The notes beneath the pieces are model-generated. The model saw nothing but the letters and a program-made list of their open reading frames with translations. It was not told where the DNA came from and made no database searches. Both the position numbers and the translations under genes were made by a program. From Candidatus Zixiibacteriota bacterium (lineage in GTDB: Bacteria; Zixibacteria; MSB-5A5; WJJR01; JAJRUJ01), in NCBI GenBank assembly GCA_020051695.1, contig JAGVQM010000042.1, positions 62,001 to 126,000 on the forward strand: a DNA stretch of 64,000 nucleotides, written 5' to 3'. How positions within the stretch are numbered: position 1 is the stretch's first letter; the number at the start of each line of letters is the position of its first letter. Shown one piece after another: positions 9,833-42,379 of this stretch.

Positions 9833-10106
9833 ACCGGTCGGCGCCCGTTGCTTCACAATGTAAGTCCACGTTTCGTTCGGCCGGCGCCGGGTACGTTTGG
9901 CCATTCAGCCCCGACTGTGCCATTTCCGCCCGGTTTACTCCCAGCTTGTACCCAAAATTCACAAAGTTTTCCACAAAAACGGACTGTCTCCGTCCATGAA
10001 ATGCGCTCAATTTGCCGTTGAACGGACTTATTACTGACAAAAATAATCTTATTTGACTGCCCCGACTGGGTGGCCGGCAGTATAATGTCGAAAGAGGATA
10101 AAAAGC

Positions 10107-40050: not shown

Positions 40051-40095
40051 ACAACCCGGATGCGTGAGGATATTCACGTGTCCTGCTGTTTATAT

Positions 40096-40167
40096 GGCGC
40101 TATCGTCTAGGGGTTAGGACGGGTGGTTCTCAGCCATCAAACCGGGGTTCGATTCCCCGTAGCGCTA
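40096..40167 (+). tRNA. tRNA-Glu, anticodon CTC
   Basis: 72-base cloverleaf. Acceptor stem GGCGCTA (40096-40102) pairs with TAGCGCT (40160-40166), with a G-U pair at position 1-72. The D arm has the glutamate-type TCGTCTAGGGGTTAGGAC. The anticodon stem is GGTGG/CCATC around loop TTCTCAG, with CTC at 40129-40131. The T arm is CGGGG, TTCGATT, CCCCG. The discriminator base is A and CCA is not encoded. It reads GAG codons. Confidence 0.95.
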
Positions 40168-40218
40168 TATTTGTGAGCAGCGGATGCAGGGTTTGGGGCG
40201 CGTTGAAAAACCAGGTAG

Positions 40219-40266
40219 GTCGGTTTCCGGAGTCACCCGCCGCGGCGGGGGACGGAGAAAGCCGAC
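40219..40266. repeat. Structured element between tRNA-Glu and the HNH cassette
   Basis: Outer inverted repeat GTCGGTTTC (40219-40227) with GAAAGCCGAC (40257-40266, one bulge) encloses a perfect 14-base palindrome CCCGCCGCGGCGGG (40236-40249). It looks like an extragenic palindromic element. No gene is seen in 40168-40372. Confidence 0.45.
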
Positions 40267-40352
40267 GATTTCTTCATGCGAACGTTGCGGGAGGGGGCTT
40301 ATACCGCGATGCCGCGGTCCAAAGGTATTATGAAGAAACTATATAACCATTG

Positions 40353-41448
40353 TTATGCGCGAGAAATAGGAAATGAAGGGACAAGTATTTACAGTTGCCA
40401 AATTGCACTACATAAACGGCGTAGTTTATGAAGTTGCAAAGAGGGATACCACCGATATCCAAACTTTGGCAGATTTGTCTCAACACACGACAAAAAGAGG
40501 CAAGGCCAAGCATCCGATGGTCCGTGTGAGAACCTTAGCTCGTCTCGCGGAGGGTGTTGGTCTCGTAGAGATATTCAATAAACACAAAATGAAAATTACG
40601 AATCTTGGCAGACAGTACGCAGAAAAAAGATCCACAAACCAATGGGAAATATCGAAAGAACAGCAAAAAATTCTTGGTCATTACATAATTGCAGATAGCT
40701 ACCGGTCAGAAACAATTTATTCAATAGCAACGCTTTTTGAGCTTTGCAAGAAAGGTTATGCCGGAGATGAACTATCCCACAAATTCGCAGAGGAAATTGG
40801 CAAATTAGATGCTTGGAAATCAGAGGCAACGTTTCGCGGTTTTACAAAATTCGGGCTGAGTTACATATCAGAATTAGGTTTGCTTGAAATCGATGAAAAA
40901 GACCTTCTGATAGAAGACATTTCGAAAGACCAAAGATATCAAAACGATATAAATAGTGTTGAACCAATCTCCCTTCCTGCAGGGGAAATTCCTCGCTCTA
41001 AACCCAAAAAATATGGTGGCACAGAGAAATATTCAACCAATCCCCGTCGTGCCAGATGTTCGCTCGAAAAAGCACATTTTCAATGTGAGCTAAACCCCTC
41101 ACACAAAACATTCGTCAATAAAAAATCTGGCAAACAATATATGGAAGCGCATCATTTGGTTCCAATGGGCAAGCAAGGTCTATTTGAGTTTGACATTGAT
41201 GTACCTGAAAATATTCTATGTATTTGCCCAAACTGTCATCGAAAAATGCATCTTGCCGAAGATGAAGATAGGGAAAAAACATTAGCGCAGGCATTTAAGC
41301 TTAGAGAGACAGTTTTACCTGCAAGGGGCATCAAAATAGACATGAAAACCCTTCTGGAAATATATTCAATAGATTGAGTATCGCATAACAAGGCGCTGCA
41401 CACGGATGGCAATTCCGCTGCGCTCCATCGCCACCGGTGAAGGCCACG
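40353..41448 (+). mobile_element. Integron-type gene cassette carrying an HNH endonuclease
   Basis: The unit begins with the core G|TTATGC (GTTATGC at 40352-40358), just upstream of a single gene, and ends at the core G|TTATCC of an attC-like site (41383-41454). One gene with a short leader plus a 3' attC is the standard cassette layout. Its base composition is far more AT-rich than the flanks, so it is foreign. No integrase gene, attI or second attC was found in the window; it would be a lone cassette inserted at a secondary GTT site near tRNA-Glu. Confidence 0.7.
40373..41377 (+). CDS. HNH endonuclease, probably restriction-type
   Basis: 334 residues. The C-terminus has an HNH/zinc module: CELNPSH, YMEAHHLVPMG with the catalytic HH pair, then ENILCICPNCHRKMHLAED with the N, the C-x2-C and the last H. 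The N-terminal 200 residues look like a DNA-binding or specificity region (helical, with RTLARLAEGVGLVEIF and KHKMKITNLGRQYAE) and resemble type II HNH restriction enzymes. No methyltransferase partner is adjacent. Codon use is AT-rich, unlike neighbours. The gene sits alone within an integron-type cassette; it ends 5 bases before the attC. Confidence 0.8.
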   Translation: MKGQVFTVAKLHYINGVVYEVAKRDTTDIQTLADLSQHTTKRGKAKHPMVRVRTLARLAEGVGLVEIFNKHKMKITNLGRQYAEKRSTNQWEISKEQQKILGHYIIADSYRSETIYSIATLFELCKKGYAGDELSHKFAEEIGKLDAWKSEATFRGFTKFGLSYISELGLLEIDEKDLLIEDISKDQRYQNDINSVEPISLPAGEIPRSKPKKYGGTEKYSTNPRRARCSLEKAHFQCELNPSHKTFVNKKSGKQYMEAHHLVPMGKQGLFEFDIDVPENILCICPNCHRKMHLAEDEDREKTLAQAFKLRETVLPARGIKIDMKTLLEIYSID

Positions 41449-41454
41449 TTATCC
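41383..41454 (+). repeat. attC-like recombination site
   Basis: 72 bases. The outer core boxes are GCATAAC (41383-41389) and GTTATCC (41448-41454). Inside, AAGGC pairs with the GGCC region near 41442, and CACACGGATGGC at 41400-41411 pairs with GCCACCGGTG at 41430-41439 as a 10-pair stem leaving two unpaired A residues on one side. Such extrahelical bases and R/L boxes are the hallmarks of attC sites. The terminal loop is AATTCCGCTGCGCTCCATC. Confidence 0.75.
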
Positions 41455-41586: not shown

Positions 41587-42321
41587 TCATTGGTTATCAC
41601 CACCTGCTTGCCCTGCGGTTGTATCATGCGACTGGCGCGGACCTGTCTGGGACGCCTGGTCGGACCATCTCAGGCGCAACCCGGCGAGCTTGACCGCCCC
41701 CCGGTGGTAGCCGTCGGGAAACAACCGCTCCAGGTCTTCCAGTTCCAGATGATTTGCCTCACACGCTTCATAGACCGTCGGCACTGCTGCATGTTGCTGG
41801 AAACTGTCGCGGATAAAATAAATTATCTGCCAGTGTCGGTCGGTCAGCGGCTGCGGCATTTTCATCTCATGGGCTTTGAACAAGGTGAATTGTTCATCCC
41901 AGTCCTCGGACCGCACAAGAAACCCCCGCCGGTCAATCTCATAGGTCCGTTCCCGCAGCGGTGTGGGGGGATAGTCGGCCGGAAGGGGAAGCCGGGCGCC
42001 CTCGGGGCAGTTTCCGAGGTAATTCACTCCCGCAAGTTTGCACGCCCCTCGCCAGTAACCGGCGGGGAAAAGTGTTCTTAATTCCGGCAAACGCAGACCA
42101 TTCGTCCGGCAAATTTGATACACCGGGGGGATGAAGCCGGTTTTAGCGAATGCCGTGCGGATGGAATAGATGACGTTCCAATGCTCCCCGGTCAACTCCG
42201 GAGACATCCGCAGCATTGCCGCCATTCCCACGGCAAAGTCCTCATCCCATTGACCGGGATCGAGCAGGAATCCCAACGGATCAACATTGTAGGCTTTGCC
42301 GCCAAAATTAAAGCTCGCCAT
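41587..42321 (-). CDS. Tandem DsrC/TusE-domain protein
   Basis: 244 residues from ATG 42321 (AAAGGAG 5 bases upstream). It holds two DsrC-like domains. Domain 1 (about 1-107): GGKAYNVDPLGFLLDPGQWD, TGEHWNVIYSIRTAFAKTGF, FPAGYWRGACKLAGVNYLGN then C105. Its cysteines 94 and 105 are 11 apart, exactly as in true DsrC (93 and 104), although domain 1 continues instead of ending there. Domain 2 (about 124-220): RTYEIDRRGFLVRSEDWDEQ, DRHWQIIYFIRDSFQQHAAV, FPDGYHRGAVKLAG, with valine 210 in place of the first cysteine and no second cysteine. It is the last gene of the hydrogenase operon, 58 bases after hypE. A role carrying sulfur for the hydrogenase or for DsrMK is inference. Confidence 0.88.
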   Translation of the reverse strand: MASFNFGGKAYNVDPLGFLLDPGQWDEDFAVGMAAMLRMSPELTGEHWNVIYSIRTAFAKTGFIPPVYQICRTNGLRLPELRTLFPAGYWRGACKLAGVNYLGNCPEGARLPLPADYPPTPLRERTYEIDRRGFLVRSEDWDEQFTLFKAHEMKMPQPLTDRHWQIIYFIRDSFQQHAAVPTVYEACEANHLELEDLERLFPDGYHRGAVKLAGLRLRWSDQASQTGPRQSHDTTAGQAGGDNQ

Positions 42322-42379
42322 AACGACTCCTTTGTCCACTGCGAATTTTCATAGTTATCCCGGGCCTGCCGCCGCCGGG

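What the first reader, a model, noticed from the sequence alone, without database searches (positions are those of the whole stretch)
40353..41454. Lone integron gene cassette with an HNH endonuclease beside tRNA-Glu
A GTTATGC core precedes a single AT-rich gene, and a 72-base attC-like site with GCATAAC/GTTATCC boxes follows it. The stem leaves two unpaired A on one side, as in real attC sites, and the loop is long. Neither an integrase nor another attC is visible, so the cassette may have been inserted at a secondary site. Integron cassettes are rarely reported from such sulfur-respiring lineages, and a solo restriction-type HNH enzyme as cargo suggests a defence or selfish role.
Basis: partly seen in the sequence, partly recalled or inferred. 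Interest (0 to 1): 0.8.

Follow-up and report, generated by a model that had tools for sequence, protein, structure and literature searches.

The report
Lone integron cassette carrying restriction-type nuclease
A single mobile integron cassette, carrying a nuclease gene that probably cuts foreign DNA, sits alone in a chromosome that has no integron of its own, and similar stray cassettes are scattered through its phylum and on phages and plasmids.

Summary
Positions 40353-41448 form one complete integron cassette: the 5' core G|TTATGC, one AT-rich ORF (334 aa, HNH at the C-terminus) and a 72-base attC (41383-41454). A covariance model trained on 11 attCs from other bacteria finds this site alone in the window (E 6e-5) and in the whole genome (E 0.003, next match E 7.8). 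Its DNA is 87-90% identical over 53-60 bases to sites on Geoalkalibacter, Citrobacter and E. coli plasmids. No integron integrase passes the family cut-off in the genome, and the gene is absent from the other 131 genomes of the phylum that were searched. It is therefore a SALIN (single attC lacking integrase), most likely left by attC x attG insertion.

In this phylum 23 of 132 genomes carry such sites but only 1 has IntI; the control class has 1 of 82. Several sites follow defence genes. One HindIII-type restriction-modification cassette with the same attC type sits in two unrelated phage backgrounds, bounded at its cores.

The nuclease is probably a type IV (modification-dependent) restriction enzyme; this is inferred. 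Insertion is also inferred, because no empty site was found.

The parts
40352..40358 (+). 5' core site GTTATGC; crossover G|TT between 40352 and 40353
   Evidence: Exact complement of the attC R'' box; chance about 0.0025 in 60 bases
40353..41448 (+). The whole cassette, 1096 bp
   Evidence: Bounded by G|TTATGC and by the attC crossover G|TTATCC; GC 0.41 against 0.57 for the window
40373..41377 (+). Single cassette gene, 334-aa HNH protein
   Evidence: ORF; start MKGQVFTVAKLHY conserved in Propionivibrio and Poribacteria relatives
40373..40897 (+). N-terminal domain, residues 1-175, no named family
   Evidence: 47% identical to a Propionivibrio protein, 26% to a Heliobacterium EVE-HNH protein
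41135..41242 (+). HNH nuclease domain, residues 255-290
   Evidence: PF13391 23.4 bits over its cut-off of 21; E258, H260, H261, N280, C285, C288, H289, H293 nearly invariant in 30 sequences
41383..41454 (+). attC site, 72 bases (R'' 41383-41389, R' 41448-41454)
   Evidence: Held-out covariance model E 6e-5, best in genome; blastn to plasmid sites E 3e-11 and 5e-9
41448..41454 (+). 3' junction core G|TTATCC; the bases TTATCC from 41449 on would be the original chromosomal target
   Evidence: Direct reading of the sequence; role inferred

Best explanation
This is a single integron gene cassette integrated outside any integron (SALIN). An integron integrase that is not encoded in this genome used the folded bottom strand of the attC and joined it to a GTT-containing chromosomal site downstream of tRNA-Glu (attC x attG), leaving G|TTATGC ... 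attC-G|TTATCC. Shown: the cassette anatomy, a genuine attC, no IntI over the cut-off and no second attC in the genome, absence of the gene from the phylum's other searched genomes, foreign composition, and the same attC type on phages and plasmids. Inferred: the insertion reaction itself, the source of the integrase (a passing plasmid, phage or transient integron), and how the gene is expressed. The cargo most likely acts as a type IV restriction enzyme: the N-terminal domain binds or recognises DNA and the McrA-like HNH domain cuts modified foreign DNA, so no partner methylase is needed. My confidence is about 0.85 for the lone cassette, 0.75 for insertion at a secondary site and 0.55 for the type IV function; the figure given is for the cassette and insertion together.
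For: attC by held-out covariance model in window and genome; homologous attCs on plasmids; exact complementary 5' core next to the start codon; low GC; no IntI over cut-off and no second attC; gene absent from 131 other genomes of the phylum while left neighbours are conserved in a same-family genome; 23 of 132 genomes of the phylum with attC sites against 1 of 82 in the control class; the same attC type bounding one restriction-modification cassette in two phage backgrounds; HNH like McrA, PADLOC mREase_IV, N-terminal domain fused to EVE and HNH elsewhere.
Against: No empty site was seen, in relatives or for the phage cassettes. The fold energy of the attC is not exceptional by itself. The genome is 98.9% complete, so an IntI in the missing part is not excluded. 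The N-terminal domain matches no known reader domain, and the HNH match to McrA is limited to about 76 residues.
Confidence: 0.75

Rival explanations
1. Remnant of a resident integron: the lineage once had intI and an array at this locus, and everything but one cassette was lost.
For: One of 132 genomes of the phylum has IntI, and another, G127, has eight attC sites, four of them on one contig, so integron parts do exist in the group.
Against: No intI remnant or second attC in the genome; both flanks are ordinary chromosome with conserved left neighbours; the other sites in the phylum are mostly single.
Confidence: 0.12
2. The cargo is an orphan type II restriction endonuclease whose methylase is elsewhere or lost, kept for defence or as a selfish gene.
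For: Its C-terminal module resembles an HNH protein beside a cytosine methylase and a Vsr-like gene in Vreelandella, and one relative lies by dnd genes. Type II restriction-modification pairs do ride on this attC type.
Against: No methylase is in the cassette. A relative of the N-terminal half is fused to an EVE domain, relatives of the C-terminal half are annotated DUF3578, and the nearest solved structure is the type IV enzyme McrA.
Confidence: 0.3
3. The palindrome is not an attC but a terminator or other hairpin that resembles one by chance.
For: The fold energy is only 1.5 standard deviations below shuffles, and the hairpin follows the stop codon, where terminators sit.
Against: Held-out covariance model, blastn to plasmid sites, exact complementary 5' core, and the same element bounding a moved phage cassette.
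Confidence: 0.04

Closest known systems
[quoted passage not shown] term defined in PMC12690207), a CALIN of one site in IntegronFinder (PMC9024848)
   Same: One attC behind one gene, with no integrase nearby or in the genome
   Different: Found in a phylum where IntI is nearly absent yet such sites are frequent; nothing structurally new
attC x attG insertion (Loot et al. 2024, Nat Microbiol 9:228-240, known here only through citing papers PMC12901181 and PMC12690207)
   Same: Cassette joined to a chromosomal GTT with no attI or attC partner visible
   Different: Only the product is seen; no empty site and no local integrase
attC-flanked cassettes with DNA methyltransferases in phages (PMC9892861)
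   Same: Restriction- and modification-related cargo on attC cassettes lacking IntI
   Different: Those are clusters of at least two attCs in phages; this is one cassette in a bacterial chromosome with a nuclease alone
McrA-type modification-dependent (type IV) restriction endonucleases
   Same: C-terminal HNH nuclease; phmmer matches residues 222-297 to 6ghc at E 5e-6; no partner methylase
   Different: The N-terminal domain is different and matches no named family

Membership tests
Integron gene cassette | attC with RYYYAAC and GTTRRRY boxes and an imperfect palindrome with extrahelical bases | tested here: met
   GCATAAC...GTTATCC; R' departs from GTTRRRY at one position (C for R); covariance model E 6e-5; fold
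Integron gene cassette | 5' end is the GTTRRRY core complementary to the cassette's own R'' box | tested here: met
   GTTATGC at 40352 is 7/7 complementary to GCATAAC; R at the sixth position is G as required, fifth is T
Integron gene cassette | Usually one ORF in the direction of the attC, ending close before it | tested here: met
   ORF ends 41377, attC starts 41383
Integron gene cassette | Recombined by an integron integrase | not testable with these tools
   Needs a recombination assay
SALIN | No second attC nearby and no integron integrase | tested here: met
   TIGR02249 best 82 bits, cut-off 265; no other attC at E below 7 in the genome; genome 98.9% complete
attG insertion | Uninterrupted target site in a sister strain | tested here: inconclusive
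   Only the left neighbours are shared with the nearest held genome
attG insertion | Crossover at G|TT in a site that is neither attI nor attC | tested here: met
   ATTG|TTATCC junction; no attC-like stem around the left side by the covariance model
Type IV (modification-dependent) restriction enzyme | Nuclease domain related to known members | tested here: met
   McrA 6ghc E 5e-6; PADLOC mREase_IV E 1.6e-6
Type IV (modification-dependent) restriction enzyme | Domain that reads modified bases | tested here: inconclusive
   N-terminal domain has no Pfam match; fused to EVE-HNH in a Heliobacterium relative
Type IV (modification-dependent) restriction enzyme | No cognate methylase alongside | tested here: met
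   Single ORF in the cassette; flanks are tRNA-Glu and a DsrC-like gene
Type IV (modification-dependent) restriction enzyme | Cuts only modified DNA | not testable with these tools
   Needs an enzyme assay

The most novel reading that the evidence does not exclude
Single-gene cassettes sharing one attC type form a dispersed, helper-dependent population. They carry mainly restriction and other defence genes, move between phages, plasmids and chromosomes, and insert one by one into bacteria that have no integron, as in about one in six searched genomes of this phylum.
Probability: 0.35. Interest if true: 0.75.

Novelty: new member of a known kind. Interest (0 to 1): 0.5.

Why it matters
Integron cassettes are usually counted inside integrons, and single attCs are dropped by the default settings of the standard finder (PMC9024848). 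Here a phylum with almost no integrase genes carries attC sites, mostly stray single ones, in about one genome in six, several behind defence genes. One restriction-modification cassette can be seen in two phage backgrounds with its ends at the recombination cores. If this is general, integron integrases acting in other cells or on passing elements feed defence genes into bacteria that never had an integron. Lone attCs would then be a usable tag for finding new defence genes.

Tried and rejected
Empty site: the tRNA-Glu flank finds essentially only the tRNA in relatives; the same-family genome shares only the left side; the joined phage junctions gave no hit; the sister pair G029/G120 shares one cassette with conserved flanks, so it is inherited, and their two other sites gave no clean empty locus. 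tRNA-Glu as attachment site of an island: rejected, its 3' end is not repeated downstream. More copies of the N-terminal domain: none in viral contigs, none besides the known one in 274 genomes of the Propionivibrio class. A first reading of minus-strand loci used the wrong orientation and was redone.

Full report
WHAT IS THERE. Downstream of tRNA-Glu(CTC) (40095-40168) lies a 1096-bp AT-rich segment, GC 0.41 against 0.57 for the window. It starts at the core G|TTATGC (40352-40358), holds a single ORF (40373-41377, 334 aa), and ends in a 72-base imperfect palindrome GCATAAC...GTTATCC (41383-41454). The 5' core is the exact complement of the R'' box, as expected for an inserted cassette. The chance of that 7-mer within 60 bases before the start codon is about 0.0025. 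Folded as bottom-strand DNA, the palindrome gives R and L stems with extrahelical bases on one arm (top-strand A41402, A41406 and G41395), the same plan as integron attCs folded in the same script. The fold energy alone is not exceptional (z -1.5).

IS IT AN attC? I collected attCs lying beside integron integrases in class 1 integron plasmids, Mariprofundus and Saccharospirillum, aligned 11 of them with long loops trimmed, and built a covariance model without the window site. The model also finds sites it was not trained on, in Vibrio and Chlorobium loci near IntI. In the window it has one match, 41383-41454, 29.9 bits, E 6e-5. In the whole 3.5-Mb genome the same site is best (E 0.003) and the next is E 7.8. 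E-values of this tool are rough. Independently, blastn of the site finds a Geoalkalibacter plasmid (90% over 59 bases, E 3e-11) and a Citrobacter plasmid (89% over 53 bases, E 5e-9). The latter copy lies on a plasmid with a group II intron reverse transcriptase beside it and qacEdelta1 and sul1 further on. An E. coli plasmid copy follows a TrlF-family ATPase gene. In a scan for R boxes, stem and matching core, the window has one such site and 20 Markov shuffles have none; the thresholds were set near the observed values.

IS IT ALONE? The integron-integrase family TIGR02249 gives at best 82 bits against a cut-off of 265, in split stretches that leave out the middle of the model. Those hits look like ordinary Xer-type recombinases; matches below the cut-off occur in all 14 control genomes too. 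No second attC was found. Across the 132 held genomes of the phylum the full nuclease gene occurs only here; a profile of its N-terminal domain finds one distant relative. A same-family genome has the same left neighbours (pth, small ORF, tRNA-Glu) without the gene. Its right side differs, so the empty site is not shown.

THE WIDER PATTERN. The attC model matches 36 sites in 23 of 132 genomes of the phylum at E <= 0.01, where about 1 genome is expected. Only one genome has IntI over the cut-off. In the class of Heliobacterium the same search matched 1 of 82 genomes. Counted by hand from the tabulated loci, 23 of about 27 with enough sequence have a same-strand ORF of at least 100 aa ending within about 100 bases before, or up to 20 bases into, the site, against 15% of random positions in the window. 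In seven the TAA stop lies inside the R'' box, and about ten have the exact matching core upstream, most of them just before the ORF. Cargo includes Mrr-TIR (L169), HerA (L171), a TIR protein (L175), a PsyrA-like DprA protein (L191), a CAP12-type TIR protein (L183) and a PDC-S31 protein (L184). I chose the proteins sent to PADLOC, so no enrichment figure is claimed; other cargo is metabolic or unknown.

DIRECT SIGN OF MOVEMENT. Two pattern scans of viral contigs gave contigs whose attCs are 81-86% identical to the window's. A 1.87-kb block carrying a HindIII-type endonuclease (PF09518, E 2e-119) and an N6/N4 methylase is 99.95% identical in L195 and in L196/L199, whose flanks do not match. The block begins at the 5' core and ends at the attC crossover; in L196/L199 the first base after the G is A instead of T. 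L164 shares the right flank of L196/L199 but has a different gene before its attC. This shows that cassettes with this attC type change place with their recombination boundaries intact. It was not shown for the window's cassette.

WHAT THE GENE DOES. Residues 255-290 are an HNH domain over the Pfam cut-off. The nearest solved structure by sequence is the type IV enzyme McrA (6ghc, E 5e-6), and PADLOC's best match is mREase_IV. The N-terminal 175 residues match no family. They are 47% identical in a Propionivibrio protein with another HNH end, and about 26% in a Heliobacterium protein with EVE and HNH domains. Relatives of the C-terminal module are annotated as DUF3578 proteins, one lies by dnd genes, and one lies beside cytosine methylase and Vsr-like genes (by reading translations). 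I infer a stand-alone, modification-dependent restriction enzyme; an orphan type II enzyme is the main rival.

HOW IT PROBABLY GOT HERE. An integron integrase from a passing element recombined the folded attC with a G|TT-containing chromosomal site. This matches the attC x attG reaction credited to Loot et al. 2024 in PMC12901181 and PMC12690207; the paper itself is not held. By the definition in PMC12690207 the product is a SALIN. PMC9024848 notes that single-attC cases can be real but are not reported by default. Expression was not settled: the cassette runs in the direction of tRNA-Glu, and a simple consensus scan found neither a + strand promoter-like site nor a terminator-like site between the tRNA and the ORF.

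VERDICT. Observation confirmed and interpretation supported. In kind it is a known thing, a SALIN. The interest lies in its frequency in an almost integrase-free phylum and in the recurrent defence cargo. The phylum could not be named with the tools; the window carries dsr-type sulfur genes (by reading translations).

Noticed in passing
window 41587-42339 (-): The gene right of the cassette encodes two DsrC-like domains in one 250-aa protein (PF04358, two stretches); a same-order genome has a similar double protein and others have single-domain ones.
   Followed up: partly
window 40219-40266: A 48-base palindrome between tRNA-Glu and the cassette belongs to a dispersed repeat: the stretch 40215-40266 has nine further copies or part-copies in this genome and several in other genomes of the class.
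   Followed up: partly
L195 10459-12323; L196 and L199; L164: A HindIII-type restriction-modification cassette with a near-identical attC lies in two unrelated phage contigs with exact cassette boundaries, and a different cassette occupies the same phage site in L164.
   Followed up: yes
L024 12002-12072 and L165 about 10001-10060: Lone attC copies of the same type follow a DNA methyltransferase gene on Geoalkalibacter plasmid pGSUB1 and a TrlF-family ATPase gene on E. coli plasmid pPE131_1. A second attC match lies at L165 15665-15734.
   Followed up: partly
L176 and L189: Two species of one genus carry the same quinone-oxidoreductase-like cassette with an identical attC and conserved surroundings, so this lone cassette predates their split.
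   Followed up: partly
G127 contigs C14, C57, C80, C83: One genome of the phylum has eight attC sites, four on a single contig, although no IntI over the cut-off was listed for it: a cassette cluster lacking an integrase.
   Followed up: no
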